Assembly (NCBI RefSeq): GCF_023015625.1
Contig: NZ_JALKAH010000002.1
Location: forward strand, 310,001 to 374,000
Origin: Yoonia sp. F2084L
GTDB taxonomy: Bacteria > Pseudomonadota > Alphaproteobacteria > Rhodobacterales > Rhodobacteraceae
Reading direction: 5' to 3'
Length of the DNA: 64,000 nucleotides
Shown: piece after piece, positions 16,729 through 59,806 of the stretch
Layout: every line of letters starts with the position of its first letter
Numbering within the stretch: position 1 is the stretch's first letter
Program-made: the position numbers and the translations under genes
Notes under the pieces: model-generated
Told to the model about the DNA's origin: nothing
Database searches by the model: none
The model's input: the letters and a program-made list of their open reading frames with translations, nothing else

Positions 16729-16733
16729 TAAGA

Positions 16734-17702: not shown

Positions 17703-17713
17703 GGTGACGTTCC

Positions 17714-18679: not shown

Positions 18680-18684
18680 GTCGT

Positions 18685-43934: not shown

Positions 43935-44924
43935 TTAAAGGTCCCGCATACGTCCCAAAATATCCGCGCCCTGCATGGCAAGAAAGTGCAAAATATCAAT
44001 GAATATCCAGTTTTCGGCCAGCTTATCGCCGTCGCGTCGATACAGATCCACGACCCGCATTTCGGATCGTGCCCCGGCGGGCATACCAAGATAGCCGCCG
44101 CCATTTGTTACGCTCAGGTTGGCCCAGCCAAAGAAACCGCCGAAATTCCCCTCGGCTGTGCGGCAGATGTGCCCGTTATAGACCCGATCCTTGATTTGCG
44201 TGCGAAACGGGCGTTGATGCTGCTCAATATAGCGGTCAATGGTGTAGGTCGCCCCAATCCCGTCAGGCCCCCACCAGACGAAATCGTCATGCCAGCTTTG
44301 AGCAAGCTCTTCTTGCGGGGTGCTGTATTTTTGATGAGTGTTGATATCGCCGATCATCTGGTTGATGAGCGTGAGCGTTTTCTCACCTTCGCCGGGTGCG
44401 GCATCATTAAACAACAAACCATCGTGGGTTGCAGGTCCCGGCTGCACCAGATGCATGCCCGTTTGCGGGGGCAGAGGGTATTGGCCCGCTTGGCTCATCA
44501 GGTGGATCAGATCGCAGAACATTGCCGTTTCAACGATCTTGCCGTCCACGACCTTATGGAACTCAGCATAGCGCAGCATCGCGATCCGGCGATTGGGTTT
44601 GATGCCAAGGAAAGGTGCATCAAACAGCCCCATCAGGTGACCCATAGAGATCACCCAGACCGACTGGAAATCATCAATCTCATTGCGACCGGCGATAAAG
44701 ATGTCCTGCCGGCGCTGGACCTTGGTCATAGCCCTCAGAAACGGCGCCCAAAAACTCTCGGCGACGGCCTGCGCCCCGTCTTGTTCATAAAACGGATGCA
44801 TCCCACGCCAGTGCCAATCTGCACTGGTGTGCACGGCCAGCGCATCTGCCACAGTTTCAGGTGTTGCTTTGGCCAGCGCATCATAATGGGCGCGCACCAG
44901 CGCTTTTTCAGATTGGAAACTCAT
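43935..44924 (-). CDS. NTF2/SnoaL-like protein, apparent tandem fusion (minus arm)
   Basis: A 329-residue protein that appears to contain two NTF2/SnoaL-like domains, about residues 10-140 (HTSADWHWRGMHPFYEQDGA) and 185-320 (DDFVWWGPDGIGATYTIDRY). It has no signal peptide. The linker GPATHDGLLFNDAAPGEG and the ending ENWIFIDILHFLAMQGADIL closely resemble the protein at 49951-50961, so the two are paralogues on opposite arms. It is the last gene of the binding-protein/permease operon, five bases after the permease. SnoaL-like folds cover isomerases, cyclases and hydrolases; which activity applies is unknown. Confidence 0.8.
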   Translation of the reverse strand: MSFQSEKALVRAHYDALAKATPETVADALAVHTSADWHWRGMHPFYEQDGAQAVAESFWAPFLRAMTKVQRRQDIFIAGRNEIDDFQSVWVISMGHLMGLFDAPFLGIKPNRRIAMLRYAEFHKVVDGKIVETAMFCDLIHLMSQAGQYPLPPQTGMHLVQPGPATHDGLLFNDAAPGEGEKTLTLINQMIGDINTHQKYSTPQEELAQSWHDDFVWWGPDGIGATYTIDRYIEQHQRPFRTQIKDRVYNGHICRTAEGNFGGFFGWANLSVTNGGGYLGMPAGARSEMRVVDLYRRDGDKLAENWIFIDILHFLAMQGADILGRMRDL

Positions 44925-44929
44925 TGCAA

Positions 44930-45808
44930 TTAGCCTTTCACAGCGCCTGCGGTCAGACCTGATACGATCTGTTTTTGGAAGAAAATGATCATGATGAACA
45001 GCGGTGCCGTGATTGACACAACAGCAGCCACCGCAAACATCACATTACCCTTGGTTTGGGTCGTACCAAGGAAGCTGACCAGCTTGGGCACCATCGTCTG
45101 GTTCTCTTTGCTCAGCAGCATCGTTGTGACAGCAAAGTCGTTATAGGCCAGCAGGAAGCTGAACAAACCTGTGGTAATCACACCGGGCCACATGACCGGG
45201 ATGATCACATGGCGAAAGGCCTGAAAACGGGTGCAGCCGTCAACCATTGCGCTTTCGTCAAGATCCGTAGGGATGTTTTTAAAGAAGGCATGCAGCATCC
45301 ACAGGGTGAAAGGCTGGTTAATCGCCACAAGCACGATGATCGTCGTGCTCAGATGGCCCCAGAGGTTCCACTCAAAGAACGGCAACAGATAGCCCGATAC
45401 CAGTGTCAGCGGCGGCATGGCGCGGAACATCAGCGCAAACAGCAAAAACCAGAACGCGTAGCGGTATGTGGATCGCGACAGGGCGTAGCCGCCCAAAGTG
45501 CCGCAGGTCAGTGAGATTGTGACAACGCAAACGCAAACGATGAATGTATTCAGTGCGGCGCGCCAGAACTCTTCTTGTATCCACGCGCCATAGTATCCGT
45601 CACCAGTAAAGCTGCCGCCGGTTTCGGCAATCGTCAGTGTACCAAACAGCGAGTTTGCCCAATCGGCCTTGGAAAAGAAGTCACCCTCAACCTTGAACGA
45701 TCCCCAGAGGGTCCAGATGAACGGGAAGGCGGCCATGACCAGCCAGAGACCTAAGAAGCCGTAGGCCATGATCTTGGTTGTGGGGGAAAGTCGGGTGGCT
45801 TTTGACAT
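44930..45808 (-). CDS. Carbohydrate-type ABC transporter permease (MalG-like)
   Basis: Second inner-membrane permease of a type I importer, 292 residues from ATG 45808 with AAGGTAG upstream. About six hydrophobic helices; the EAA loop that contacts the ATPase reads DLDESAMVDGCTRFQAFRHV followed by IIPVMWPGV. The C-terminus is FQKQIVSGLTAGAVKG, typical of MalG/UgpE-type permeases. It starts four bases after the first permease stop. Confidence 0.93.
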   Translation of the reverse strand: MSKATRLSPTTKIMAYGFLGLWLVMAAFPFIWTLWGSFKVEGDFFSKADWANSLFGTLTIAETGGSFTGDGYYGAWIQEEFWRAALNTFIVCVCVVTISLTCGTLGGYALSRSTYRYAFWFLLFALMFRAMPPLTLVSGYLLPFFEWNLWGHLSTTIIVLVAINQPFTLWMLHAFFKNIPTDLDESAMVDGCTRFQAFRHVIIPVMWPGVITTGLFSFLLAYNDFAVTTMLLSKENQTMVPKLVSFLGTTQTKGNVMFAVAAVVSITAPLFIMIIFFQKQIVSGLTAGAVKG

Positions 45809-45812
45809 CGGG

Positions 45813-46838
45813 CTACCTTGCCTTTCCGAAATCGCGCCACGTCCGCACAAGGACAGGCGACAACAGGATCGCGACACCAATGATTGTCAGCACCGATGTG
45901 GCGGCAGCAGAGGAGAGCAAACGCGTCTCGCCACCCAAATCGTTGAAGATGGCGAATGACAGCGACCTTGCATGGGCCTGTGCGCTGAAACTCACGATGG
46001 GTTCAAAGACGCGGAAGTTATCCATCAGCTGAATCAAGGCGATGAACGTGGTCAGCGGCACCAGATGAGGAATGACAACATAGCGAATGCGCTGCCAGCG
46101 GGTAGCCCCGTCAATCATCGCGGCCTCAAGCGTGTCTGTATTCACAGTTTGCAGACCAGCGTAATAGACGATGAAGGCAAAAGGGGCGGACGACCAGATG
46201 CCGTAGACCATCAGCATAATCCACGTCAGCGGGGTCGAGGCTTTGACCGAGAGGTTCGGGTCGTCGGCCAGCCACTGCAAGCCAGCACCCAGAACGCCCC
46301 GCGCATCCACCATCCAGAACAGGACCAGCGCGCCGACGATTGGGGTGACGATCATCGGCAAAAGCGATAAAAAGATCGTGGGCCCGCGCATCGTCCTTGC
46401 GACGGCGTTGACGCCAATGGCAATCAGAAAACCAAAGATGATCGTCAGGGGTGTGACCACGGCGGTATATGTCAATGTGAACGCAATCGCGTCATAGAAC
46501 GGCAGGTTCATCAAAGACCCTGCGAAATCACGCATGCTGACTGAACTGGCCCAAGCCTCGCCGACTTCTGCAAAGGCAAGGTGGTTGCGATCTTTGTAGA
46601 TATCCAGACCGGCCCACTGGCCCAATGGCTGTGCCGCGCGCAGGGCTTCGGTGGCTTGGGTGTCAACGGTCGTTGATTGCGTGCAACCGAAGGGGCCGCA
46701 GTTTTCAACCTCAATCAGAACCTGCTCATGCTCTTGATAAAGCGATTGTGTGACCACCGACACAATCGGGAAGGCGATGAAGGTCAGCATCAGCAGGGCT
46801 GATGGGAGGACAAACCAAAAAAAGGAGGAATGCTTCAT
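45813..46838 (-). CDS. Carbohydrate-type ABC transporter permease (MalF-like)
   Basis: First permease of the importer, 341 residues. After the first membrane helix (about residues 8-30) an unusually long periplasmic loop of some 80 residues contains two close Cys (C47 and C52 in VENCGPFGCTQ) before the second helix. The remaining helices and the EAA loop (DTLEAAMIDGATRWQRIRYV then VIPHLVPL) are standard. It lies 57 bases after the binding-protein gene with a hairpin between them. Confidence 0.92.
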   Translation of the reverse strand: MKHSSFFWFVLPSALLMLTFIAFPIVSVVTQSLYQEHEQVLIEVENCGPFGCTQSTTVDTQATEALRAAQPLGQWAGLDIYKDRNHLAFAEVGEAWASSVSMRDFAGSLMNLPFYDAIAFTLTYTAVVTPLTIIFGFLIAIGVNAVARTMRGPTIFLSLLPMIVTPIVGALVLFWMVDARGVLGAGLQWLADDPNLSVKASTPLTWIMLMVYGIWSSAPFAFIVYYAGLQTVNTDTLEAAMIDGATRWQRIRYVVIPHLVPLTTFIALIQLMDNFRVFEPIVSFSAQAHARSLSFAIFNDLGGETRLLSSAAATSVLTIIGVAILLSPVLVRTWRDFGKAR

Positions 46839-46861
46839 ATGATTTGCCCCAGATCGTGAAA

Positions 46862-46886
46862 CGGGAAGGCGGCACGCGCCTTCCCG
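46862..46886 (-). other. Intra-operon hairpin after binding-protein gene
   Basis: Perfect 10-bp stem CGGGAAGGCG / CGCCTTCCCG with a 5-base loop in the gap between the binding-protein gene and the first permease gene. No T-run follows. Such structures commonly stabilise the upstream mRNA so that binding protein exceeds permease. Confidence 0.7.
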
Positions 46887-46895
46887 ATTGCGTCC

Positions 46896-48125
46896 TTACT
46901 GCAGGAAGCCTTTTTCAGTCGCCGCAGCCGTGTAGGCCGCTTCGATATCTGCCAATGTCTGTTCGGCGCTTTCGTTGCCTTGCAGGAAATCCGCGATGTT
47001 GTCACCCAGTGCTGTGTGCAAAAGGCCCTGGAATGGACGCATTGGGTAGGGGGTGGAACCGGCTGCAACAGAAGCCAAAACGCCTTCGTTGACGGCTTCA
47101 GGTTGGTAGCCTTCCATCAGCCAAACCGCTTGGCTCATCGTCGTGTCATCCAAAATCGCAGGAGATACACCGGCGGCCATCGCTTGGAATGTCGCCGCCG
47201 CATCTTCATCGCTGATGTTCTTGGCGACGGTCCAACCGTCCCACCAGAGTGTCGTGGCAGGTGTGCCGCTGTCGCCAACGGTCAACGGGCCGGACACGGC
47301 CGTGTTTTCATAGACTTCCGGTGCTGCCCCTTCGTCGTCCATCAGAACACCGGTACGGCTGCCCCACATATTCATCAAGGCCACATTGCCTGCTTCCCAC
47401 TCGGCAGAGGTCGCGTTGCTGTCGTGCGTGAGATAGTCAGGGTTCATATAGGCAGTCAGCGCCTTCATCATCTCAAGCGCCTCAACGCCCTGCGCATTGT
47501 TGATGCTGATTTCGGCAGTGCCGGGTTTGAAGAACGCGCCGCCTGTCCCAATGTACATATTGGTGAATTCCTGTGCGAGGTTCCAACCGGCGGCATATGC
47601 ACCACCCACCGGGTGTTCCATGATGCCAGCGGCGCGGATCGCCTCGGCCGCAGCAAGCACTTCTTCGTAGGATGTGGGCACTTCAAGGCCAACCTGCTCA
47701 AGCACGTCAGCGCGGTACACAAGGTGCTGGGCGTTCGCCATGAAAGCAACGGCCATGATCTTACCGTCAACGGTGATCAACTGCGAAGGCGCGATGTCCT
47801 GGCCATATTCAGCAACCAAATCGTCAAGCGGGCGGATCACATCTTCGTTGATCAGGGCGACGATGGAAGAGTTCGCAACGATCGCCGTTGTGTACTCAGC
47901 CGGGTTGCCTGTCATACCGGCAACATTGAGTGTTTGGTGATCAGCCGTCAGGTTCGACGAAAATGTGATGCCTTCACATGCACCAGCTGCGGCAGCGACA
48001 GTTTGGATCGCAGGAAATTCGTTGCCGATGATGCTGACACGACCATCCGCTTCGCAGGCGAAGGTGCCCGTCGCGGTAAGTGCAGCAACGGCGGTGCCCA
48101 GCATAGCAGTTTTCCAGATTTTCAT
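46896..48125 (-). CDS. ABC transporter extracellular solute-binding protein (family 1)
   Basis: Periplasmic binding protein of 409 residues. Signal peptide MKIWKTAMLGTAVAALTATG with cleavage near TFACE. The mature part has the family 1 plan: LINEDVIRPLDDLVAEYGQD, GKIMAVAFMANAQHLVYRAD, VPTSYEEVLAAAEAIRAAG, EWEAGNVALMNMWGSRTGVL and TLWWDGWTVAKN. Aromatic residues near the cleft fit a sugar-like ligand, but specificity cannot be read. A strong GGGAGG precedes the ATG. It heads the minus-arm operon, starting 80 bases from the nearer LacI-type operator. Confidence 0.92.
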   Translation of the reverse strand: MKIWKTAMLGTAVAALTATGTFACEADGRVSIIGNEFPAIQTVAAAAGACEGITFSSNLTADHQTLNVAGMTGNPAEYTTAIVANSSIVALINEDVIRPLDDLVAEYGQDIAPSQLITVDGKIMAVAFMANAQHLVYRADVLEQVGLEVPTSYEEVLAAAEAIRAAGIMEHPVGGAYAAGWNLAQEFTNMYIGTGGAFFKPGTAEISINNAQGVEALEMMKALTAYMNPDYLTHDSNATSAEWEAGNVALMNMWGSRTGVLMDDEGAAPEVYENTAVSGPLTVGDSGTPATTLWWDGWTVAKNISDEDAAATFQAMAAGVSPAILDDTTMSQAVWLMEGYQPEAVNEGVLASVAAGSTPYPMRPFQGLLHTALGDNIADFLQGNESAEQTLADIEAAYTAAATEKGFLQ

Positions 48126-48204
48126 TTTTTAAGAACCTCCCAGTTGTTCTTTTGGTACCGGTGTGTCCCGGCTGGATATCGGCCATCCGCGAATCGCGAT
48201 GGCT

Positions 48205-48220
48205 TTGCATACGTTTGCAA
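48205..48220 (-). promoter_or_regulatory. LacI-type operator O1 (minus-arm side)
   Basis: TTGCATACGTTTGCAA, the exact reverse complement of the copy at 48330-48345. Arms TTGCA/TGCAA around a CG centre match the general LacI/GalR-family operator pattern. It lies 80 bases upstream of the binding-protein start. The regulator is probably the LacI protein at 53780-54784. Confidence 0.78.
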
Positions 48221-48329
48221 GTTAACCTTCAATGGTCCGCATCACGCAAGCATTTTGAGTGTGAAAAGCAAAGAAATTTAAGTGCTGACGATTTATACTT
48301 GCCAGATTTTCGGAATCGCGGCAGTCTTT

Positions 48330-48345
48330 TTGCAAACGTATGCAA
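48330..48345 (+). promoter_or_regulatory. LacI-type operator O2 (plus-arm side)
   Basis: TTGCAAACGTATGCAA, 10 bases before the ATPase start codon and 31 bases downstream of a TATACT hexamer (48294-48299) that may be a -10 element. Its centre is 125 bases from that of O1, near twelve helical turns, allowing looping. Confidence 0.78.
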
Positions 48346-48355
48346 GGGGCGCATC

Positions 48356-49402
48356 ATGGCCGAAATTCAGCTACGCAATGTATCCAAACGGTGGGGGTCT
48401 TTTGTTGGCGTTCAGAGTTTTGATCTGACAATCGCTGATCAAGAGTTCCTTGTGCTGCTTGGTCCATCTGGATGCGGCAAGACTACGACGATGCGCATGA
48501 TTGCGGGGCTAGAAGACGCCACTGACGGTGACATCATGGTTGACGGCAAGCGGATCAACGATCTTGAACCCAAGGACCGCGACGTGGCGATGGTGTTCCA
48601 AAGCTATGCGCTTTATCCCAACCTGAACGTCTATGAAAACATCCGCTTTCCGCTGAAAGTACGCGGTGTGCCGCAGGTCGAACACGACGAGCGCGTGATG
48701 CGCGCTTCGGCCATGGTCGAACTGGATGACTTCCTGCACCGCAAACCCGCAGAACTGTCAGGCGGCCAACGCCAGCGTGTTGCCTTGGCGCGCGCCATCG
48801 TGCGTGAACCCAATGTGTTCTTGATGGACGAACCCCTGTCAAACCTTGATGCGAAACTGCGGGTCTCCACGCGCGCACAGATCAAGAACCTCAGCCATGA
48901 ACTCAAGGTCACTACGATCTACGTGACCCACGACCAGATCGAAGCCATGACACTGGCGGACCGCGTTGTGGTGATGAGCAAAGGTGTGGTTCAGCAAGTC
49001 GGAACGCCCACGGAAATCTACGACAACCCCGCCAACACCTTCGTTGCGGGTTTCATCGGATCGCCGGCCATGAACCTTGTCGATGGCGAGATTTCTGATG
49101 GGACGTTCACGGCGAAAAATATGACTATCAGCGGTTTGCCGACCGGGCAGAGTGGCCCTGTCACACTGGGCTTCCGCGCAGAAGATGCGAGCGTCGCCGA
49201 AGGCAGTGCCGAGGTTAACTCCGCCGTCTATTCGCTCGAACTTTTGGGCGAGGCGACGATGGTGACGATGCGTGTGGGCAACACGATTGTGTCCGTGAAA
49301 TCGGGCAAGGAATATCGGGTCGAGATTGACGAACCGGTCCACGCCAACATCCCTGCCGACATCTGCCACCTGTTCGATCAAAAAACAGGCGAGCGCATCT
49401 AG
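48356..49402 (+). CDS. UgpC/MalK-type ABC transporter ATP-binding protein
   Basis: ATPase of the importer, 348 residues from ATG 48356 (MAEIQLRNVSKRWGSFVGVQ). Walker A GPSGCGKTTTMRMIAG, Q-loop MVFQSYALYPNLNVYENIRF, signature LSGGQRQRVALARAIV, Walker B FLMDEPLSNLDAKLR and the switch His in TTIYVTHDQIEAM are intact. A C-terminal TOBE-like domain is present. It heads the plus-arm operon immediately after operator O2; AAGGGGCGCATC serves as ribosome-binding region. An upstream in-frame extension crosses both operators and is rejected. Confidence 0.95.
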   Translation: MAEIQLRNVSKRWGSFVGVQSFDLTIADQEFLVLLGPSGCGKTTTMRMIAGLEDATDGDIMVDGKRINDLEPKDRDVAMVFQSYALYPNLNVYENIRFPLKVRGVPQVEHDERVMRASAMVELDDFLHRKPAELSGGQRQRVALARAIVREPNVFLMDEPLSNLDAKLRVSTRAQIKNLSHELKVTTIYVTHDQIEAMTLADRVVVMSKGVVQQVGTPTEIYDNPANTFVAGFIGSPAMNLVDGEISDGTFTAKNMTISGLPTGQSGPVTLGFRAEDASVAEGSAEVNSAVYSLELLGEATMVTMRVGNTIVSVKSGKEYRVEIDEPVHANIPADICHLFDQKTGERI

Positions 49403-49459
49403 CGGGCAGATGCCGCAGCCGATCACGCCTGAAAGATACAACACAGCAAAGGACGCCGC

Positions 49460-49951
49460 ATGACCCGCGACGCAAAATCACAAGCCTCACTCGATGCCGT
49501 CAAAGCGATGGAACAGGGTCTTGCGAACAACGAAATGGATATGCTGAAGTACTTTACCGAAGATTTCACATGGCGCGGCAATCAAGGGTGCGGCACCAAG
49601 AATGGCGTCAAGGCATTCCAGCGTAACTGGCAATGGCCGCTACGCGCGGCATTCACCGACCGCGACTATAAGACGGATCAGTTCCTAGCTGACGGCGAAT
49701 GGGCCGCCTGTTTCGGCCATATCGAAGGCACACATACCGGCACATTCATGGGCATCCCTGCCACCGGCAAACGAGTCAAAATCCCATATATGGATTTCTG
49801 GCGGGTTGAGGACGGGCGCATCGCCGACAACCCGGTCTCGGTCGATTTCGTCTCCGTGATGATGCAACTCGGTGTCGATGTCTTTGGCGGCGAAGGCTGG
49901 GAGAAATACGACAAAGGCGACGCAGAGCCGCCTAAACCGGAAGGGTACTGA
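49460..49951 (+). CDS. NTF2/SnoaL-like protein, single domain
   Basis: A 163-residue one-domain NTF2/SnoaL-like protein. Features: N-terminal helix (SLDAVKAMEQGLANNEMDML), YFTEDFTWRGNQGCGTKNGV, GTHTGTFMGIPATGKRVKIP and the closing segment DNPVSVDFVSVMMQLGVDVF, which echoes the C-termini of the two-domain proteins in this cluster. SnoaL-like polyketide cyclases and ester cyclases share the GxPATGKRV-type strand. AAAGGA precedes the ATG; the stop overlaps the next start (TGATG). Substrate unknown. Confidence 0.83.
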   Translation: MTRDAKSQASLDAVKAMEQGLANNEMDMLKYFTEDFTWRGNQGCGTKNGVKAFQRNWQWPLRAAFTDRDYKTDQFLADGEWAACFGHIEGTHTGTFMGIPATGKRVKIPYMDFWRVEDGRIADNPVSVDFVSVMMQLGVDVFGGEGWEKYDKGDAEPPKPEGY

Positions 49952-50961: not shown

Positions 50962-50973
50962 GAGGTCTGCATC

Positions 50974-52284: not shown

Positions 52285-52287
52285 GTC

Positions 52288-53019
52288 ATGGCAACGGGGA
52301 AGAAACGCAAACCAAAAAGCTACAGCGCGCTCGATGACCTCGGGCGCGTGCGGCTATCGCGGCATTTCTTCATGCGTGATTTTCTTTACACCGAAATCGG
52401 CAACTTCTTTGGCATCCCGAATATCCCCGATGATCCTAATCTTGCGATCACAGCAGGCATGCAGCTTTGCCAGAACCTGCTCGACCCGATGGTCGATACA
52501 TTCGGGCCGATTGCTGTGCGCTCTGCCTATCGGTCGCCGACGTTGAACCATTTTGGGGCGACCGAGGCCAAACCACAGCGCTGCGCACGCAATACATCAA
52601 ATTACGCAGGCCACATCTGGGATATGCGCGATGCCAAGGGCCGGATGGGGGCCTGCGCCAGTATCGTGGTGCCGTGGTTTGCAGATCAATACGATCATGG
52701 TCGCGACTGGCGCGATCTGGCCTATTGGGTGCACGATCATCTGCCCTATCACGAGATGTGCTTCTTTCCAAAACTTGCAGCCTTCAATCTGACATGGCGC
52801 GAAGAGCCTGCGCGCATGATCTACAGCTACGTGCGCCCGCTGGGCAAGCTGGTCCATGCCGGTCACCCTCCGCCTGAAGATCACGGCGAACGCATGGCGC
52901 GGTACGCTGATTTTCCGCCGTTCGAGGGCATCAAATATCCAACGCCGCCCGCTGATCGTCTTGCTCGAAAAACTCCCGCCAGAGGCTCTGGCACCATCGA
53001 CAAGGGGCTATCGCAATGA
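52288..53019 (+). CDS. Protein of unknown function, weak M15-peptidase-like pattern
   Basis: A 243-residue soluble protein not recognised with confidence. The opening LSRHFFMRDFLYTEIGNFFG, the central VDTFGPIAVRSAYRSPTLNH and NYAGHIWDMRD recall D-Ala-D-Ala carboxypeptidase-like (Peptidase M15) folds, with a later YHEM possibly supplying another His. Spacing differs slightly from the usual HxxxxxxD, there is no signal peptide, and the C-terminus is Pro/Arg-rich. It sits between the dehydrogenase (3-base gap) and the SDR (4-base overlap), so it belongs to the operon; its metabolic part is unclear. Confidence 0.7.
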   Translation: MATGKKRKPKSYSALDDLGRVRLSRHFFMRDFLYTEIGNFFGIPNIPDDPNLAITAGMQLCQNLLDPMVDTFGPIAVRSAYRSPTLNHFGATEAKPQRCARNTSNYAGHIWDMRDAKGRMGACASIVVPWFADQYDHGRDWRDLAYWVHDHLPYHEMCFFPKLAAFNLTWREEPARMIYSYVRPLGKLVHAGHPPPEDHGERMARYADFPPFEGIKYPTPPADRLARKTPARGSGTIDKGLSQ

Positions 53020-53780
53020 CATTACCGACCACCCCTTCCTTCCGGCTTGATGGCAAACGCGCACTGGTGGCCGGCGGGTCCTCGGGCATTGGCTTGGCCT
53101 GCGCGGTGGCCTTGGCAGAGGCTGGGGCCGATGTCACAGTCTCGGCACGCAACGCAGAGAAGCTGGGCGCTGTTGTCCAACAAATGCGTAACGCAGGGTT
53201 TCAGGCACAGGCCATCGCGATGGATGTGTCAGACGTTGCGGCGACCGAAGCGACCGTCGCCGAACAGGGCCCCTTCGACATTCTGGTCAACTCGGCTGGC
53301 CTCGCCATCCACTCGCCCGCCATTGAAACGACAGAGCAAGATTTCGACGCCGTCTCTGACATCAACTTCAAAGGCGCTTATTTCCTCACCCGCGCAGTCG
53401 CTAAGGGTCTGCTCAACGCTGGCAAACCCGGCAGCCTGATCAACATCACCAGCCAGATGGCGCATGTTGGCGGGATCGAGAGGGCGGTTTATTGCAGTAC
53501 GAAATTCGCGGTCGAAGGCTTTACCAAGGCCATGGCCATCGAATGGGGCAAACAGGGCATCCGGGTCAACACGATCTGCCCGACTTTCATCCGCACGCCA
53601 TTGACCGAACAGACCTTCAGCAACCCTGACCGGGTCGCGTGGATCATGGACAAGATCAAGCTGGGGCGCGTGGGCGAAGTCACCGACATGATGGGACCTG
53701 TTGTCTACCTCGCCTCGGACGCTTCCGCGCTGATGACCGGCACGCATATGTTGATCGACGGAGGTTGGACAGCAGACTGA
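53016..53780 (+). CDS. SDR family NAD(P)-dependent oxidoreductase
   Basis: Classical short-chain dehydrogenase of 254 residues. The cofactor loop is VAGGSSGIGLACAVALAEAG, followed by NSAG, the catalytic Ser in NITSQMAHVG and YCSTK with the Tyr/Lys pair. The C-terminus MTGTHMLIDGGWTAD is typical. An Arg after the second strand (SARNAEKLG) hints at NADP preference. It overlaps the genes on both sides. Likely oxidises or reduces a hydroxyl/keto group in the pathway served by this operon. Confidence 0.93.
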   Translation: MTLPTTPSFRLDGKRALVAGGSSGIGLACAVALAEAGADVTVSARNAEKLGAVVQQMRNAGFQAQAIAMDVSDVAATEATVAEQGPFDILVNSAGLAIHSPAIETTEQDFDAVSDINFKGAYFLTRAVAKGLLNAGKPGSLINITSQMAHVGGIERAVYCSTKFAVEGFTKAMAIEWGKQGIRVNTICPTFIRTPLTEQTFSNPDRVAWIMDKIKLGRVGEVTDMMGPVVYLASDASALMTGTHMLIDGGWTAD

Positions 53781-54784
53781 TGGTTAAGATCACATCTCTC
53801 CAAGTCGCTGAACGCGCAGGCGTCAGCCAATCGGCGGTCAGTCGGGTGTTTACACCCGGTGCATCCGCGAGTGCCAAGACGGTGGAGAAGGTCCGCAAGG
53901 CAGCCGAAGAGCTTGGCTACCGCCCAAACATGATGGCGCGCGCGATGATCACCGGTAAAAGCCGGATCATCGGGTTGGTTGTGGCGTATCTGGATAACCA
54001 GTTCTATCCGCTGGCCCTGCAGCTGCTGTCCAATGCGTTGCAGGAAAAAGGCTATCACATCCTTGTCTTCACCGCGTCCAACAGCCAAGGGGCCGCCGAA
54101 GAGGTCATGCAAGAACTACTCGACTACCAGGTCGACGGGATCATCACGGCTTCAGTCGGCATGACAAACGATTTAACGCAACGCTGCGCGGCGGCAGGTA
54201 TTCCGGTCGTCATGTTCAACCGTGGGCAAGAAGGCGAAGCGATCTCCTCGGTCACATCGGCCAACGTCAAAGGTGGACGTGCGGTCGCAGAATTTCTGCT
54301 GTCCTGCGGGCACAAGACCATCGGTCATATCAGCGGCTGGGCTGGGTCATCTACCGGACGCGACCGGCAGGCGGGGTTCTGCGAGGTGCTGGCCGAACAT
54401 GGTATCACACCCCAGATCATCGACGGCATGTACGACCGCGAAACTGCCGCCGCCGCCGCGCAATCCATGATGGACAGCAGCATACCACCCAACGCCATTT
54501 TCGTGGGCAACGACCACATGGCATTTGCTGTGCTGGACACGCTGCGCCACGAAATGGGGCTACGCGTGCCGGACGATGTGGCGATTGTCGGTTACGACGA
54601 CGTACCCTTGGCGGCATGGCCTGCCTACAACCTGACGACGATGCGCCAGCCCCTGAACCGCATGGTCGAGGCCACGGTCGAGGCGCTGATCAGCCGCATC
54701 GACGACCCGACACTGCCCGCACAGCTGATAGAAATAGACAGCCCGCTTATCCAGCGCGGCACCACCAAAGGACCAAAGACATGA
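53780..54784 (+). CDS. LacI family transcriptional regulator
   Basis: A 334-residue LacI/GalR regulator starting at ATG 53780 inside the SDR stop. The helix-turn-helix reads LQVAERAGVSQSAVSRVFTP followed by the hinge LGYRPNMMARAMITGKSRII. The periplasmic-binding-protein-like core has GLVVAYLDNQFYPLALQLLS, DGIITASVGM, GHISGWAGSSTGRDRQAGF and DDVAIVGYDDVPLAAWPAYN. It is the best candidate to bind the two operators at 48205-48220 and 48330-48345. Location within the operon it likely represses gives autoregulation. Confidence 0.94.
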   Translation: MVKITSLQVAERAGVSQSAVSRVFTPGASASAKTVEKVRKAAEELGYRPNMMARAMITGKSRIIGLVVAYLDNQFYPLALQLLSNALQEKGYHILVFTASNSQGAAEEVMQELLDYQVDGIITASVGMTNDLTQRCAAAGIPVVMFNRGQEGEAISSVTSANVKGGRAVAEFLLSCGHKTIGHISGWAGSSTGRDRQAGFCEVLAEHGITPQIIDGMYDRETAAAAAQSMMDSSIPPNAIFVGNDHMAFAVLDTLRHEMGLRVPDDVAIVGYDDVPLAAWPAYNLTTMRQPLNRMVEATVEALISRIDDPTLPAQLIEIDSPLIQRGTTKGPKT

Positions 54785-55764
54785 AGGGCTTTTCCAACCG
54801 CTGGAAAGATTTCCCCGACTACATCATCGGGATCACCAAAGAGATTTGGGAAGATCGGGGCGTTGGCACGCTGAACCATTATTATGCGCCTGATATTCCT
54901 GTACGCTCGCCCATGGGGATTAGCATGGGCAATCAAGACGTGATCGCCGCAACCATGGCCACAATCAACGAATTCCCGGATCGTGAACTCTTGGGCGAAG
55001 ACGTGATCTGGTCAGGTGATGAAAACACGGGCTATCTGTCATCTCACCGCTTGCTGACCAAAGCAACACACACACGCGACGGACAATTCGGCCCGGCAAC
55101 AGGCAAACACTGGCAGGTCTATGTCATCGCTGATTGCGCGGCAAAAGAAGACACGATCTACGACGAATGGCTGGTCCGCGACTACGGTGGGATCGTGCGG
55201 CAGTTGGGGATGGACCCGCGCGATTATGCCGCCGAACTGATCGCCCGCGAAGGTGGCCCCGACAAAGCCAACAAACCCTTTACGCCTGCGATGGACGTTG
55301 ACGGAGGCTATCACGGCACCGGGAATGACAACGCATGGGGGCAACGCTATGCGGACACACTCACCCGGATCATGAACCACGACTTTACACATATCCGCGA
55401 CAGCTATGACCGAGCCTGCATTGGCGAATATGCGGGCGCGAGACGAGCGGTCGGTTGGGAAGGTATCCTCGAATTCTGGGTTGGCCTGCGATCGTCCTTC
55501 CCGCATGCAGAGTTCAAAATCCACCACCAGATCGGCATGGATGCCGACATGCTGTCGCCTCGCGCCGCGATCCGCTGGTCACTCGACGGCAAGCACGAAG
55601 GCTGGGGCAGCTTCGGCGAACCCACCGGTGCGGACGTGCACGTAATGGGGATGTGCCACGCCGAGTTCGGACCTTACGGTCCTGACGGTGTTGGCCTGCG
55701 TCGCGAATTCGCGCTTTATGATGAAATTGCGATCTGGAAGCAGATTTTGATGGCGCAGGGTTAA
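54781..55764 (+). CDS. NTF2/SnoaL-like polyketide-cyclase-type protein, two domains
   Basis: A 327-residue protein from ATG 54781, which overlaps the lacI stop (ATGA). First half, about residues 5-145: IIGITKEIWEDRGVGTLNHY, YAPDIPVRSPMGISMGNQDV; second half, about 185-320: FTHIRDSYDRACIGEYAGAR, GWEGILEFWVGLRSSFPHAE. Both halves have the SnoaL plan of a starting helix, a conical beta-sheet and a conserved Asp/His region. It is more distant from the other NTF2-like proteins of the cluster. A longer reading upstream inside lacI is spurious. Confidence 0.8.
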   Translation: MKGFSNRWKDFPDYIIGITKEIWEDRGVGTLNHYYAPDIPVRSPMGISMGNQDVIAATMATINEFPDRELLGEDVIWSGDENTGYLSSHRLLTKATHTRDGQFGPATGKHWQVYVIADCAAKEDTIYDEWLVRDYGGIVRQLGMDPRDYAAELIAREGGPDKANKPFTPAMDVDGGYHGTGNDNAWGQRYADTLTRIMNHDFTHIRDSYDRACIGEYAGARRAVGWEGILEFWVGLRSSFPHAEFKIHHQIGMDADMLSPRAAIRWSLDGKHEGWGSFGEPTGADVHVMGMCHAEFGPYGPDGVGLRREFALYDEIAIWKQILMAQG

Positions 55765-55767
55765 CCC

Positions 55768-56163
55768 ATGACAGATCGCAGCATCATACCACCCGGCATG
55801 GAAGGCTACGTTGACGATTGGAAGATGTCACCTGCGCTCTTTTCAGGTGATTTTCTGTTTCTAACCGGCATGACCGGGGCAGGGCCCGGCGGCACAGTCG
55901 ACCCCGACCCCGAGGCGCAAATCAAGCTGGCTTTCGCGCGTGTCAACAGCGTGCTGGAACATGCCGGCCTCAGCTTTGCCGACGTCGTCGAAATGACCAG
56001 CTACCACGTTGGTATTCGTGATCACATTGCCGCGTTCCGCCAAATCCGGGACCAGTATGTGACCGACCCCTATCCCGCATGGACTGCAATTGAAGTGGCA
56101 GGGTTCGTGACCCCCGGCACCATCTGCGAACTTCGCATTATCGCGAAACGAGGAACGACATGA
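55768..56163 (+). CDS. RidA family protein
   Basis: A 131-residue Rid-family protein; members hydrolyse reactive imines or enamines released by PLP enzymes or amine oxidations. Visible features are ALFSGDFLFLTGMTG, AQIKLAFARVNSVLEHAGLS, the VVEMTSYHVGIRDH strand, YPAWTAIEVAGFVTPGTICE and the Arg in ELRIIAKRG, which corresponds to the catalytic Arg of RidA. Three bases after the previous stop and overlapping the cupin gene, so co-translated. Suggests a nitrogen-containing or enol-type intermediate in the pathway. Confidence 0.9.
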   Translation: MTDRSIIPPGMEGYVDDWKMSPALFSGDFLFLTGMTGAGPGGTVDPDPEAQIKLAFARVNSVLEHAGLSFADVVEMTSYHVGIRDHIAAFRQIRDQYVTDPYPAWTAIEVAGFVTPGTICELRIIAKRGTT

Positions 56164-57128
56164 TGACCCCCGCTGAAATGGAAAGCCGCATCGTCCGCTA
56201 TGGCGAGCTGCAACCCTGCAAAACTGCCTTCATCGACGCCCACACGCCCGGCTCTGATCAAAAAGAGAATTTTACGATCATCGGTGGCGGCGTGTCCGAG
56301 AGCCCCGACCAACACGTCCACATCAACATCCCGCATCGGTTCAACATCGGTGCCGCCGGGCAGCCGCCGCGCGTGCGCAATTCCTTGCATGATCACCACA
56401 CGGCAGAGGTGTTCTTTGTCCTGAAAGGCAAATGGCGGTTCTTTTGGGGACGTTGGGGTGACGCGGGTGAGGTCGTGCTGGAAGAGGGCGACATCTTCAA
56501 CATCCCCACCGGCATCTTCCGTGGGTTTGAGAATATCGGGACCGACTACGGGATGATCATGGCCGTCCTTGGCGGCGACGACGCAGGCGGCGGTGTCATG
56601 TGGGCGCCGCAGGTGATTGAAGACGCGGCAGATCACGGGCTGATCTTGGGCGAGAACGGCAAACTCTACGACACCAAGCGCGGGCAGAAACTGCCGGAAG
56701 GGACTGGCCCCATGCCCCTGATGTCGGACGAAGAACTCGCCAAGCGGCCAGAGCCGACAACGGCAGAAGTGCTGCCCAACCACGTTGCCCGCTACTGGGA
56801 CCTCTATGCGCTGGCCGACAAGAAACCCGCCAAGGTCATCGGCGAACATGGCATCCTGCGTGACAAACCGGGGTTCGAGATTGATTTCATCACGCGCGGT
56901 TCCGCGAGTGAGGCGAAACACAGCCACCCATACCCATCCGTTCTGATGCCCATGCGCGGGCATTGGCGGGTCACATGGGACGGCGGCATAGCGACGCTGG
57001 CACCGGGTGACACGATGTCCGTGCCGGAAAACTTGCCGCATAGCGCGGTGCCTTCGATGACGGGAGAGGCCAGCCTCTACCACATCGTCGCGACGGGCGA
57101 TTCGGCGGGGGCCACGTGGAAAGGTTAA
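56160..57128 (+). CDS. Bicupin domain protein
   Basis: A 322-residue protein with two cupin barrels. Cupin 1 (about residues 70-145) has HDHHTAEVFFVLKGKWRFFW and GDIFNIPTGIFRGFENIG, giving several His and a Glu for metal. Cupin 2 (about 235-310) has KHSHPYPSVLMPMRGHWRVT and APGDTMSVPENLPHSAV. Bicupins include gentisate-type dioxygenases, isomerases and decarboxylases; the residues fit a metal enzyme but no reaction can be assigned. Start is the ATG at 56160 or 56163, overlapping the ridA stop. It ends the tightly coupled plus-arm gene run. Confidence 0.87.
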   Translation: MMTPAEMESRIVRYGELQPCKTAFIDAHTPGSDQKENFTIIGGGVSESPDQHVHINIPHRFNIGAAGQPPRVRNSLHDHHTAEVFFVLKGKWRFFWGRWGDAGEVVLEEGDIFNIPTGIFRGFENIGTDYGMIMAVLGGDDAGGGVMWAPQVIEDAADHGLILGENGKLYDTKRGQKLPEGTGPMPLMSDEELAKRPEPTTAEVLPNHVARYWDLYALADKKPAKVIGEHGILRDKPGFEIDFITRGSASEAKHSHPYPSVLMPMRGHWRVTWDGGIATLAPGDTMSVPENLPHSAVPSMTGEASLYHIVATGDSAGATWKG

Positions 57129-57146
57129 CGGCCTGCGCGATGACAG

Positions 57147-57179
57147 CTGTACGTACAGCGTGTGTACAGGTTCTGTACG
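57147..57179 (+). promoter_or_regulatory. TGTAC-rich palindromic site upstream of MetE-like gene
   Basis: A 14-bp perfect palindrome GCTGTACGTACAGC (57147-57160), followed by two more TGTAC boxes at 57164-57168 and 57175-57179. It lies in the 77-base gap before the MetE-like gene, 27-59 bases from its start, and looks like an operator for an unknown regulator. Confidence 0.55.
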
Positions 57180-57205
57180 CGAAACATACTTAAGAGGATG
57201 ATGAA

Positions 57206-58330
57206 ATGTCGAAAGTCTTAACCACCCACGTGGGCTCTTTGCCCCGCACCCAGGAAGTCGTCGATTTCATCTTCGCGCGCGAGCATGGCAATGAATACGA
57301 TGCGGATGCTTTTGATGCGGCCATGACATCGGCAGTCTCAGAAACCGTGCGAAAACAGGTGGATGCAGGCATTGATATCGTCAGCGATGGCGAGACGTCC
57401 AAGATCAGCTATGCCACCTACGTCAAAGACCGCTACACCGGTTTCGATGGCGACAGCCCGCGCAACGCGCCTGCCGACCTCAAGCAATTCCCCAGCTTTC
57501 TCAAACGCTTAGCCGACGACGGCGGCACCCCGCAGTACGCAAGGCCCATGTGCGTGGGCGAGGTGAAATCAAAAGGGCAGGGTGAATTGGAAAAGGACAT
57601 CGCGAACCTTAAGGCGGCGATGGCGGAACATGGGGCAGAGCGCGGCTTTATGAACGCCGCATCCCCTGGTGTTATCTCATTGTTTTTGCAGAATGATTAC
57701 TACAAATCACGCGAGGCTTATCTGGCTGCACTGGCTGATGCGATGAAGAAAGAATACGAAACCATCGTGGCCTCTGGCCTCGACCTACAACTCGATTGCC
57801 CCGACCTCGCGTTGTCGCGTCATATGTTGTTTAACGATTTATCGGATGATGAATTTCTCAAGATCGCGGCAAGCCATGTCGAAGCGCTGAACCACGCGCT
57901 GTCCGATATGCCTGCCGAAAAGGTACGGGTGCATATCTGCTGGGGCAACTACGAAGGGCCGCATGTCTGCGACATTCCGATGTCAAAGATGTTCGACACG
58001 CTGATGTCGACGAAATCGCAGTACGTGCTGTTTGAAACCTCCAATCCGCGTCATGGCCATGAATGGTCCGTCTTCCGTGATCGCGCAAAGGATATCCCTG
58101 ATAACAAAGTGTTAGTGCCGGGTGTCGTTGATACGACAACCAACTTCGTGGAACATCCCGAGCTTGTCGCCGAACGCGTCAGTCGTTTCGTGAACATCGT
58201 TGGTGCAGACCGCGTGATCGCTGGATCAGATTGCGGATTTGGGACATTCGCAGGCTTTGGCGCTGTCGATCCCGAAATCGCCTATGCAAAGCTGGGCGCG
58301 CTGTCCGAAGGGGCAGCTCTGGCCAGCTAA
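57206..58330 (+). CDS. Cobalamin-independent methionine synthase II family methyltransferase
   Basis: A 374-residue protein resembling only the C-terminal catalytic half of MetE. It opens with LTTHVGSLPRTQEVVDFIF; the zinc site of the family is intact as His243 and Cys245 (VHICWGNYEG), Glu277 (LFETSNPRHGHEW) and Cys343 (GSDCGFGTF). Short MetE-like proteins transfer methyl groups from donors other than folylpolyglutamate or act on other thiols. It lies after the TGTAC palindrome and 60 bases before the flavoprotein gene. AAGAGGATGATGAA holds the ribosome-binding site. Substrate not known. Confidence 0.9.
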   Translation: MSKVLTTHVGSLPRTQEVVDFIFAREHGNEYDADAFDAAMTSAVSETVRKQVDAGIDIVSDGETSKISYATYVKDRYTGFDGDSPRNAPADLKQFPSFLKRLADDGGTPQYARPMCVGEVKSKGQGELEKDIANLKAAMAEHGAERGFMNAASPGVISLFLQNDYYKSREAYLAALADAMKKEYETIVASGLDLQLDCPDLALSRHMLFNDLSDDEFLKIAASHVEALNHALSDMPAEKVRVHICWGNYEGPHVCDIPMSKMFDTLMSTKSQYVLFETSNPRHGHEWSVFRDRAKDIPDNKVLVPGVVDTTTNFVEHPELVAERVSRFVNIVGADRVIAGSDCGFGTFAGFGAVDPEIAYAKLGALSEGAALAS

Positions 58331-58390
58331 ACGGGTTGGACGCGCGGCGTTTTTGGACCATGTAGCGTGTTAACCTGAAGGGGAATTCAC

Positions 58391-59806
58391 ATGCTTAACC
58401 CGGTCACGCCCGAATTTGAAAGTAAGCTGCGTGGCTTGCTACCTGCTGCGGCCTTTAAAGAGGACAGTGCGCCCTATCTGTCGGAACCACGCGGGCGCTG
58501 GGCAGGACAAGGCTTTGTGGTCGCACCGGGGTCAACGGATGAGGTCGCATCTGTGGTTCGCACCTGCGCCGATGCGCAAGTGCCGATTGTGCCTTACAGC
58601 GGCGGAACCGGTCTCGTTGGTGGGCAATTAGCCGGCGACGGGCCGATCCCGGTTGTACTTTCTCTGGAGCGTATGAACCGCATCCGCGATATCTATCCGT
58701 CTGAGAATGTGCTGGTTTGTGACGCGGGCGTGATCCTCGCCGATGTACACAAAGCGGCCGAAGATGCGGGGCGCTTGTTCCCGCTTTCGCTGGCTTCCGA
58801 AGGGTCAGCGCGTATCGGTGGATTACTGTCAACGAACGCAGGTGGCGTGAATGTGCTGCGCTATGGCAATGCGCGCGCGCAATGTCTGGGGCTAGAGGTG
58901 GTGCGCCCGGATGGCACGATCTGGCATGGGCTGACGCGGCTGCGCAAAGACAACACCGGGTATGACCTGCGCAACCTGATGATCGGTGCCGAAGGAACGC
59001 TGGGCATTATCACGGCTGCTGCTTTGAAACTCGCCCCAAGGCCTGTTGGCGTTGGTGCTGCGATGATGGCGGTGGCCTCGCCTGCGGCAGCGCTGGACCT
59101 GCTTGCCATGGCTGGTGACCAGATCGGCGAAGGGGTATCAGCTTTTGAAATCATGCATCGTGCAGGCTTTGATTTTCTGGATGAGGTCGGGCCAGACTAC
59201 AAACAACCCTTTGATGAGGTCCCCGAATGGACCGTGCTGATTGACGTTGGGCTGCCTGCCGGGTTGCACCCGGAAGAGGCATTGGAAGGGCTTTTTTCCA
59301 GCGCGTTTGAAGCAGGGTTGGTGACTGATGGCGCGGTTGCCCAGAACGTCGCACAGCGCGACGCATTCTGGCATATTCGCGAAAGTATACCGGAGGCGAA
59401 CCGGCGCATTGGGTCGGTCAGTTCGCATGATATCTCGCTCCCGCTCAGCGCCATCCCTGCATTTATTGAACGGGGCAAGCAGGCACTCGCTGAGGTGGGC
59501 GCGTTTCGGATCAATTGCTTTGGGCATCTGGGCGACGGAAACCTGCATTACAATGTTTTCCCGATGCCGGGGAAAAACCGCGCGGCCTATGAGGCGGAGC
59601 GGCCAGAGGTAAAGCGTGTTGTGCATGATCTGGTGCACGCGATGGACGGTTCTGTGAGCGCAGAACACGGGATCGGTCGGTTGAAGATCAAAGACCTTGA
59701 GACCTATGGCGACCCGGCCAAACTGGCGATGCTGCGGGCGATCAAGGATGCGCTTGATCCTTTGGGGATCATGAACCCCGGTGCTGTTTTGCGTGAAACA
59801 GGATAG
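58391..59806 (+). CDS. FAD-binding 2-hydroxyacid dehydrogenase (GlcD/D-lactate dehydrogenase-like)
   Basis: A 471-residue FAD_binding_4 / FAD-oxidase_C flavoprotein. The FAD domain has VPYSGGTGLVGGQLAGDG, LSTNAGGVNVLRYGNAR and GAEGTLGIITAAALKL; the C-terminal domain has FGHLGDGNLHYNVFPMP and AEHGIGRLKIKDLE with metal and substrate His residues. Family members oxidise D-lactate, glycolate or D-2-hydroxyglutarate. AAGGGGAATTCAC precedes the ATG. Possibly the last step of the neighbouring catabolic cluster; it ends before an inverted terminator pair. Confidence 0.92.
   Translation: MLNPVTPEFESKLRGLLPAAAFKEDSAPYLSEPRGRWAGQGFVVAPGSTDEVASVVRTCADAQVPIVPYSGGTGLVGGQLAGDGPIPVVLSLERMNRIRDIYPSENVLVCDAGVILADVHKAAEDAGRLFPLSLASEGSARIGGLLSTNAGGVNVLRYGNARAQCLGLEVVRPDGTIWHGLTRLRKDNTGYDLRNLMIGAEGTLGIITAAALKLAPRPVGVGAAMMAVASPAAALDLLAMAGDQIGEGVSAFEIMHRAGFDFLDEVGPDYKQPFDEVPEWTVLIDVGLPAGLHPEEALEGLFSSAFEAGLVTDGAVAQNVAQRDAFWHIRESIPEANRRIGSVSSHDISLPLSAIPAFIERGKQALAEVGAFRINCFGHLGDGNLHYNVFPMPGKNRAAYEAERPEVKRVVHDLVHAMDGSVSAEHGIGRLKIKDLETYGDPAKLAMLRAIKDALDPLGIMNPGAVLRETG

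What the first reader, a model, noticed from the sequence alone, without database searches (positions are those of the whole stretch)
43935..59806. Unassigned LacI-controlled catabolic cluster with split ABC importer and many NTF2-like proteins
Two divergent operons share an operator pair. Together they encode a carbohydrate-type importer, four NTF2/SnoaL-like proteins, a HisD-family dehydrogenase, SDR, RidA, bicupin, LacI regulator, and downstream a MetE-like methyltransferase and a 2-hydroxyacid flavoprotein. Tight overlaps show that the genes from 49460 to 57128 act together. I know no described pathway with this set. Inference: import of a sugar- or polyol-like compound, ring or lactone steps by SnoaL-like proteins, alcohol-to-acid oxidation by the HisD-like enzyme, imine removal by RidA.
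Basis: partly seen in the sequence, partly recalled or inferred. Interest (0 to 1): 0.78.

Follow-up and report, generated by a model that had tools for sequence, protein, structure and literature searches.

The report
Unassigned marine polyol-catabolism gene cluster
A switchable set of uptake and breakdown genes, shared by many marine bacteria and found in related forms in soil and plant bacteria, appears to oxidise a small sugar-like compound that nobody has yet named.

Summary
In detail: two divergent gene sets (43935-48125 minus, 48356-59806 plus) face each other across a 230-bp gap holding two copies of one 16-bp LacI-type operator, the genome's only sites with under 2 mismatches. The bicupin occurs in 179 of 390 sampled genomes of the order; the 80 best-matching loci mostly repeat ABC importer, SnoaL/NTF2 proteins, HisD-like dehydrogenase, SDR, LacI, bicupin and MetE-like protein. 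RidA (1 of 80), the 52288 protein (6) and the flavoprotein (10) are lineage extras. Most of these loci also carry an alpha/beta hydrolase and an RraA-type aldolase; the window lacks both, but its genome keeps the pair unlinked, and 142 of 143 genomes with this RraA have the bicupin. The HisD-like protein lacks HpsN's sulfonate-binding His, falls in a third supported clade, and the genome has HisD and an HpsN separately. Best reading: LacI-controlled uptake and oxidative breakdown of a diol-ended, sugar-acid-like compound; substrate unknown. Open full-text searches found no description. New variant of a known kind.

The parts
43935..44924 (-). SnoaL/NTF2-like protein, two domains (lineage-variable)
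   Evidence: Pfam SnoaL_2/SnoaL; an ntfA-type best hit in 12 of 80 related loci, >=50% identity in 4; it lies at or beyond the edge of many fetched loci
44930..45808 (-). ABC importer permease (start taken at the internal ATG)
   Evidence: BPD_transp_1
45813..46838 (-). ABC importer permease, sugar type
   Evidence: BPD_transp_1, weakly UgpA-like
46896..48125 (-). solute-binding protein of the importer
   Evidence: SBP_bac_1; weak matches (E 6e-8 or worse) to sugar-binding proteins in the PDB
48205..48220 (.). operator 1, TTGCATACGTTTGCAA
   Evidence: sites with <=2 mismatches in 21 of 22 divergent SBP-ATPase gaps among L031-L110
48330..48345 (.). operator 2, exact reverse complement of operator 1, 10 bp before the ATPase start
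48356..49402 (+). ABC importer ATPase (MalK type)
   Evidence: ABC_tran + OB_MalK
49460..49951 (+). SnoaL/NTF2-like protein, one domain
   Evidence: SnoaL 8e-22; 47 of 80 loci at >=50% identity
49951..50961 (+). SnoaL/NTF2-like protein, two domains
   Evidence: 10 of 80 loci at >=50% identity, more at 33-45%
50974..52284 (+). HisD-family dehydrogenase of a third clade (apart from HisD and HpsN)
52288..53019 (+). protein of unknown family, accessory insert
   Evidence: no Pfam; weak PHROG endolysin match; in 6 of 80 loci
53016..53780 (+). SDR dehydrogenase, sugar-acid/polyol type
   Evidence: nearest PDB entries 2-deoxy-D-gluconate 3-dehydrogenase and gluconate 5-dehydrogenase
53780..54784 (+). 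LacI-family regulator
   Evidence: LacI + Peripla_BP_3; ATG at 53780
54781..55764 (+). SnoaL/NTF2-like protein, two domains (most conserved of the four)
   Evidence: >=50% identity in 78 of 80 loci
55768..56163 (+). RidA-family protein, lineage-specific insert
   Evidence: 1 of 80 loci
56160..57128 (+). bicupin
   Evidence: Cupin_2 twice; model and Foldseek; 179 of 390 genomes
57206..58330 (+). MetE C-terminal-domain-like protein with HxC...E...C zinc-type residues (H243 C245 E277 C343)
   Evidence: 70 of 80 loci
58391..59806 (+). FAD-dependent D-2-hydroxyacid dehydrogenase-like protein, lineage-specific
   Evidence: 10 of 80 loci

Best explanation
A LacI-controlled uptake and oxidative breakdown pathway for a small polyhydroxylated (sugar-, polyol- or sugar-acid-like) compound whose identity is unknown. 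Shown by sequence: an operator at each of two divergent operons, a sugar-type ABC importer, a conserved enzyme set (HisD-like, SDR, SnoaL-like proteins, bicupin, MetE-like) and, in this genome at another locus, the alpha/beta hydrolase and RraA-type protein that sit in the cluster in most of the relatives read. Inferred working: the importer brings in the compound; the HisD-like enzyme oxidises a terminal -CH2OH next to a zinc-bound hydroxyl to a carboxylate in one four-electron, NAD-dependent step, as HpsN does for DHPS; the SDR oxidises another hydroxyl to a ketone; SnoaL-like proteins and the bicupin rearrange, hydrate or oxidatively open the product; the hydrolase and the RraA enzyme (HpcH in other bacteria) cut it to central metabolites, the usual chemistry of 2-keto-4-hydroxy acids. 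The MetE-like zinc protein probably moves an alkyl or methyl group to a thiol; its place in the order is unknown. Likelihoods: regulated catabolic unit about 0.9; HisD-like step as described about 0.65; exact order of the later steps about 0.3.
For: In 22 plasmid or phylum-wide loci with a HisD-like gene of the G[KR][FY]P[ML] motif (window clade or HisD2 type), SDR lies within 2.5 kb in 18, a LacI gene within 8 kb in 21 and an HpcH or RraA gene within 12 kb in 16; 14 of the 22 were fetched through the bicupin, so those counts are biased; of the 8 fetched through HisD (picked by hand from 274 records) SDR 6, LacI 7, aldolase 3. Sulfitobacter pontiacus and Antarctobacter carry LacI, TAXI-TRAP, HisD, SDR and HpcH and/or RraA with no bicupin or SnoaL gene in the stretch shown. 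RraA profile: 142 of 143 genomes with it have the bicupin, odds ratio 806, against 3.9 for HpsN over the 390 genomes. HisD catalytic and zinc residues are conserved, and the lysine near the sulfonate of HpsN is kept. SDR nearest to sugar-acid dehydrogenases. Operators.
Against: No substrate, activity or expression evidence. The unlinked hydrolase-RraA locus has no operator within 3 mismatches, so it is not shown to be co-regulated. 37 of the 179 bicupin genomes lack the RraA at this threshold. L042 and L060 show no HisD-like gene although 10 kb upstream of the bicupin was read. The MetE-like protein was found in only 1 of the 22 plasmid/phylum loci, so it belongs to a marine variant rather than to the core. 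The two Rhizobium loci with transhydrogenase and acetate-CoA ligase have no adjacent SDR, aldolase or bicupin. The co-occurrence test is not corrected for phylogeny.
Confidence: 0.6

Rival explanations
1. A DHPS (sulfonate) pathway variant: the HisD-like gene is an HpsN and the SDR an HpsO.
For: HpsN is the closest solved relative (368 bits against 256 for the best HisD); the Lys353 equivalent is conserved; HpsO (8wwf) is among the SDR's PDB matches, though below sugar-acid dehydrogenases (130 against 169 bits); the weakest listed match of the binding protein is the sulfoquinovosyl glycerol-binding protein SmoF (E 9e-6).
Against: The HpsN-defining His126 is Met, and none of 94 homologues kept from the fetched loci has His there; an HpsN-type protein with motif GRYSH, beside an SDR, a LacI gene and (by eye) an MDR dehydrogenase, lies elsewhere in the same genome; separate clades, 100/100 and 98/95 support; no sulfo-lyase among the sixteen cluster genes.
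Confidence: 0.04
2. A spare histidine-biosynthesis dehydrogenase inside an unrelated sugar operon.
For: TIGR00069 hisD passes its cut-off (431.6 against 243.8 bits).
Against: The genome has another HisD that scores higher (551.8 bits) and has the HisD motif (L162); HisD rows form a separate 100/100 clade; the gene has an SDR within 2.5 kb in 65 of the 68 loci of L031-L110 that have it.
Confidence: 0.02
3. A biosynthetic cluster in which the SnoaL-like proteins cyclise a polyketide-type product.
For: SnoaL family assignment.
Against: NF033407 (SnoaL methyl ester cyclase) scores 41.4 of the required 200 bits; importer, LacI, aldolase and hydrolase are the usual parts of catabolic operons; no synthase among the cluster genes.
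Confidence: 0.06
4. The core ends at the bicupin (57128) or at the MetE-like gene; the FAD protein serves another function.
For: Gaps of 77 and 60 bp; FAD protein in 10 of 80 loci only.
Against: The MetE-like gene is present in 70 of 80 loci; in the 10 loci that have it the FAD gene follows MetE or RraA.
Confidence: 0.3
5. The compound is specifically a four-carbon sugar acid or its derivative (tetronate type).
For: Related bicupin-HpcH-hydrolase modules sit with otnK and a neighbouring aldolase in Thioclava, Vibrio pelagius and Ensifer, and L095 has both sets.
Against: In the stretches shown those three modules lack a HisD gene; no otn genes in the window cluster.
Confidence: 0.15

Closest known systems
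HpsN/HpsO branch of 2,3-dihydroxypropanesulfonate (DHPS) catabolism
   Same: HisD-fold, zinc- and NAD-type dehydrogenase beside an SDR and a LacI gene; catalytic Glu/His/Asp, zinc ligands and the lysine near the anion conserved
   Different: His126 replaced by Met or Leu; separate clade; bicupin, SnoaL, MetE-like, hydrolase and RraA parts are not named for the DHPS route in the passages read; an HpsN-type gene is present elsewhere in the genome
Histidinol dehydrogenase (HisD)
   Same: family model, catalytic residues
   Different: motif and clade; linked to uptake and catabolic genes
OtnK tetronate modules
   Same: related bicupin, HpcH aldolase and alpha/beta hydrolase occur beside otnK in other bacteria
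   Different: no otn genes in the window cluster; HisD-like and SDR added
LacI-controlled CUT1 sugar importers
   Same: regulator, operator pair, binding protein, two permeases, ATPase
   Different: the passages read of the LacI survey PMC4052901 name no regulon with these enzymes, and its main text holds neither 'hisD' nor 'cupin'; its tables and supplements were not read

Membership tests
DHPS 3-dehydrogenase (HpsN) | His126, last residue of motif 122-126 (PMC11382572, passages read) | tested here: not met
   Met in the window; His in none of 94 homologues kept
DHPS 3-dehydrogenase (HpsN) | Glu318, His319, Asp352 and zinc ligands | tested here: met
   (shared with HisD)
DHPS 3-dehydrogenase (HpsN) | falls in the HpsN clade | tested here: not met
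   own clade 98/95, HpsN-motif clade 100/100; the 14 HpsN rows all come from the window's own genus and none is a characterised enzyme
DHPS 3-dehydrogenase (HpsN) | hpsO and hpsP beside it | tested here: not met
   SDR present, no MDR gene in the cluster; beside the other copy, L163, lie an SDR and an MDR gene (by eye)
Histidinol dehydrogenase of histidine biosynthesis | NCBIfam TIGR00069 cut-off | tested here: met
   431.6 against 243.8 bits; not specific, since the HisD2 type and the pRL8 copy pass it too
Histidinol dehydrogenase of histidine biosynthesis | clade and motif of true HisD | tested here: not met
SnoaL polyketide methyl-ester cyclase | NCBIfam NF033407 cut-off of 200 bits | tested here: not met
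   41.4 bits for 49460-49951; no match for 43935 and 49951; 54781 not scanned
Cobalamin-independent methionine synthase (MetE) | NCBIfam equivalog cut-offs | tested here: not met
   best 94.7 of 406 bits
Cobalamin-independent methionine synthase (MetE) | HxC...E...C zinc-type residues (pattern recalled) | tested here: met
   at least 97% conserved in 70 rows; the spacing to the Glu differs from the recalled MetE spacing, so its role is a guess
Glycolate oxidase GlcD | TIGR00387 cut-off of 567.9 bits | tested here: not met
   231.6 bits
LacI-regulated sugar importer operon | LacI gene, conserved palindromic operator, sugar-type importer | tested here: met
LacI-regulated sugar importer operon | effector and transported sugar | not testable with these tools
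   needs ligand screening

The most novel reading that the evidence does not exclude
An undescribed, widely spread catabolic pathway built round a third clade of HisD-fold dehydrogenases that oxidise a non-sulfonated, diol-ended compound. Its bicupin occurs in nearly half of the Rhodobacterales-type genomes sampled, and related clusters occur in Rhizobiaceae, Enterobacterales, Sphingomonadales, Bacillota and Deinococcota, with exchangeable importers and exchangeable last enzymes (RraA or HpcH), so it targets a common but unrecognised compound of algae and plants.
Probability: 0.55. Interest if true: 0.72.

Novelty: new variant of a known kind. Interest (0 to 1): 0.58.

Why it matters
If right, a common carbon currency between algae or plants and bacteria has gone unnamed although the bicupin of its breakdown cluster is carried by 179 of 390 sampled genomes of the order. 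Genes annotated 'histidinol dehydrogenase', 'ester cyclase', 'cupin' and 'methionine synthase' in these genomes would be misread in metatranscriptomes, and HisD-family genes of this third clade should not be counted as DHPS degraders. The RraA-bicupin link, the motif test and the operator make the question directly testable.

Tried and rejected
Rejected: DHPS degradation (His126 test, tree, separate HpsN-type gene); spare HisD; homarine route (recalled lead; the one search, listed three papers on other compounds); RidA as a core step (1 of 80 loci). Ideas held only from memory and not pursued for lack of evidence: pantothenate, ascorbate, 2-C-methylerythritol and mycosporine breakdown.

Led nowhere: NCBIfam names for the hydrolase, HpcH, RraA and bicupin of related clusters (no cut-off met); PDB searches for the bicupin, MetE-like, one SnoaL-like, solute-binding and RraA proteins (weak); fold model of the 52288 protein (pLDDT 57.8, no match at E<=0.001); bicupin fold (pLDDT 75.7; quercetinase, salicylate dioxygenase and oxalate decarboxylase class, TM about 0.47, too general to name a reaction); the LacI survey and the Ruegeria pomeroyi transporter paper (passages found by term only) name nothing that matches. 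Promoter-like sites 3 found against 7.6 expected; terminator-like sites 23 against 16.8. No tRNA gene in the window.

Literature: all ten searches used, open full text only. Papers seen in passages: PMC11131964, PMC11382572, PMC4052901, PMC10130141. All others as listings, among them PMC6337780, the one paper that holds both 'nuclear transport factor 2' and 'histidinol dehydrogenase' (one occurrence of each, a Xanthomonas signalling study). No supplement was read.

Rows dropped before counts: HisD rows under 380 aa (99 hits, 95 rows with the window kept) or under 370 aa and identical copies; tblastn hits covering under 30% of the query; ORFs under 110 aa and unannotated ORFs under 170 aa (its overlap rule also hides some genes, so SDR counts 56 there against 72). 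Some genomes are held twice (as a named locus and as a G handle), so rows are not all independent. The loci are those listed there, not all that were held. The three order searches each examined 390 genomes with shared handles; I take them to be the same set.
Full report
What is there. The sixteen genes between 43935 and 59806 are open and as described. Pfam gives a complete sugar-type ABC importer, four proteins of the SnoaL/NTF2 class (three with two domains), a Histidinol_dh protein, an SDR, a LacI regulator, a RidA protein, a bicupin, a MetE C-terminal-like protein and a GlcD-like flavoprotein. One further protein, 52288-53019, matches no Pfam family and only weakly an endolysin PHROG. From 49460 to 57128 neighbouring genes overlap by 1-4 bases or lie 3-12 bases apart; the gaps of 77 and 60 bases before the MetE-like and flavoprotein genes are looser.

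Control. The 230-base gap between the divergent operons holds two 16-base palindromes, exact reverse complements of each other, one about 80 bases before the binding-protein gene and one 10 bases before the ATPase gene. With up to 3 mismatches the pattern has 37 places in the 3.88-Mb genome against 22 for the reversed-pattern control; only these two have fewer than 2 mismatches. Of 22 divergent SBP-ATPase gaps among L031-L110 (layouts), 21 hold at least one site with <=2 mismatches and 19 at least two (sites). In 4 of the 7 loci with a second HisD-like gene (HisD2; sites in L051, L087, L091, L110) sites of the same kind lie near that gene. The unlinked hydrolase-RraA locus of the genome has none within 3 mismatches.

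Conservation. The bicupin was found at E <= 1e-40 in 179 of 390 sampled genomes of the order, which the named relatives place in Rhodobacterales, and at E <= 1e-25 in 24 of 398 sampled across the phylum, 16 of these from the window's own family with the window's genome counted. The 80 named loci are the best of 579 that encode a relative, with 79-93% bicupin identity, so they sample close kin. In them >=50% identity was found for the most conserved SnoaL protein in 78, LacI 76, SDR 72, MetE-like 69, HisD-like 68, the one-domain SnoaL protein 47 and importer genes 43 to 53, but RidA in 1, the 52288 protein in 6 and the flavoprotein in 10. Of the 12 loci without a HisD-like gene of the motif, 10 have under 5 kb upstream of the bicupin; L042 and L060 have 10 kb and are real exceptions. 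An ORF-based reading found two further usual members behind the MetE-like gene: an alpha/beta hydrolase in 60 of 80 and an RraA-family protein in 56 of 80 loci (a few of these hits lie off the cluster). A recurring GMC-oxidoreductase-like ORF (named by eye) occurs in 12.

The missing pair. The window lacks both, as do relatives with the flavoprotein directly behind MetE (L031, L032, L036, L067, L107). The genome's only RraA-family gene lies on another contig directly behind a matching hydrolase. Over 390 genomes this RraA subfamily (E <= 1e-50) occurs in 143, 142 of which have the bicupin (odds ratio 806). HpsN, used as a patchy control (E <= 1e-150, 215 genomes), gives an odds ratio of 3.9 against the bicupin (130 of 215). 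In 114 genomes where both places were listed (the bicupin list was cut), 96 pairs lie within 6 kb and 18 do not, among them all nine genomes, the window's included, whose RraA is at least 90% identical to the window genome's. The test ignores phylogeny, and 37 bicupin genomes have no RraA at this cut-off.

The dehydrogenase. Its best solved relatives are HpsN enzymes (368 bits) ahead of HisD (256 bits). Aligned to HpsN, the catalytic Glu, His, Asp and the zinc ligands are kept, and so is the lysine next to the sulfonate, where HisD has tyrosine. [quoted passage not shown] Of 95 rows kept, the window among them, none has His there: 74 at >=75% identity read GKFPM, ten read GKYPL or GRYPM, ten HisD2-type rows read GRYPL or GRFPL, and one is a true HisD. 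The genome carries three family members: a true HisD, an HpsN-type protein (motif GRYSH, 45% identical to the window's) beside an SDR, a LacI gene and, by eye, an MDR dehydrogenase, and the window's. A maximum-likelihood tree of 55 rows gives HisD (8 rows) and HpsN-motif proteins (14 rows) as clades at 100/100 and the window's clade of 28 rows at 98/95, with five HisD2-type rows outside at 92/76. Limits: all 14 HpsN rows come from the window's genus, no characterised HpsN is in the tree, and the program warns of long branches, L119 and L222 above all.

Other contexts. Distant cupin homologues (32 to 39% identity over 61 to 91% of the query) sit with HisD, SDR, LacI, alpha/beta hydrolase and HpcH genes, and with different importers, in Klebsiella michiganensis, Pantoea dispersa, Novosphingobium, Priestia and Deinococcus plasmids. 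SnoaL ('ester cyclase') genes are shown in all of these but Klebsiella; Priestia and Deinococcus have a cupin of about 207 aa; the HisD of Novosphingobium and Priestia is of the HisD2 type. Closer homologues (71-75%) lie with RraA instead of HpcH in Roseibium and Martelella. A second type, bicupin with HpcH, hydrolase, otnK and a neighbouring aldolase, shows no HisD (Thioclava, Vibrio pelagius, Ensifer). The window-clade HisD and an SDR also travel without the bicupin, with LacI, TAXI-TRAP and HpcH and/or RraA in Sulfitobacter pontiacus and Antarctobacter; in Rhizobium johnstonii 3841 pRL8 and Rhizobium sp. CC1099 the HisD lies with transhydrogenase and acetate-CoA ligase and without an adjacent SDR. 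So the logic shared by most is importer, HisD-like, SDR and a carbon-carbon cutting enzyme.

Proposed working. By established HisD and HpsN chemistry the enzyme turns a terminal CH2OH beside a zinc-bound group into a carboxylate. The conserved lysine and the loss of the sulfonate-binding His suggest an anion other than sulfonate, probably carboxylate (inference). The SDR is closest to 2-deoxy-D-gluconate 3-dehydrogenase and gluconate 5-dehydrogenase; HpsO is also in the list at a lower score. That fits oxidation of a second hydroxyl. HpcH and RraA families cleave or decarboxylate 2-keto-4-hydroxy acids and oxaloacetate-like acids (established knowledge), which fits the end of such a chain. The SnoaL-like proteins and the bicupin (fold of the quercetinase and oxalate decarboxylase class; in 36 close rows H77, H79, E83 invariant and H254, H256, H294 nearly so) stand between; their reactions are not shown. 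The MetE-like protein keeps a zinc-type pattern and is common in the marine clusters but was found in only 1 of the 22 others.

Comparison and novelty. It works like the HpsN step of DHPS catabolism but fails three tested membership features of HpsN (His126, clade, hpsP-type neighbour). As an operon type it is a LacI-controlled sugar importer with oxidative enzymes, a known kind; as a pathway nothing matching was found in the searches of open papers named above, which cannot exclude a description in a subscription journal. I call it a new variant of a known kind. The main weakness is that the substrate remains unnamed.

Noticed in passing
window 52288-53019: Protein of no Pfam family inserted between the HisD-like and SDR genes, also in 6 of 80 relatives; weak PHROG endolysin match over its N-terminal part (1.2e-4; 5.4e-7 for the L082 homologue); low-confidence model.
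   Followed up: partly
window 57146-57159: Perfect 14-base palindrome GCTGTACGTACAGC in the gap before the MetE-like gene, with an imperfect one at 57164; could be another regulator's site.
   Followed up: no
L163/L166, own genome C7 about 237700-238900: A separate, apparently genuine DHPS-type locus (HpsN-motif protein with SDR, LacI and, by eye, an MDR dehydrogenase) in the same genome.
   Followed up: partly
L051, L064, L065, L087, L090, L091, L110: A second HisD-like subfamily (HisD2, motif GRYPL), in some loci with an amidase gene, near the same cluster and in four of these loci near operator-like sites.
   Followed up: partly
L095 about 16190-19310: An otnC-otnK-bicupin set of the second type lies beside a full HisD-type cluster.
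   Followed up: no
window 42729-43787: Hint-domain protein (PF13403, E 2.5e-49) directly beside the cluster.
   Followed up: no
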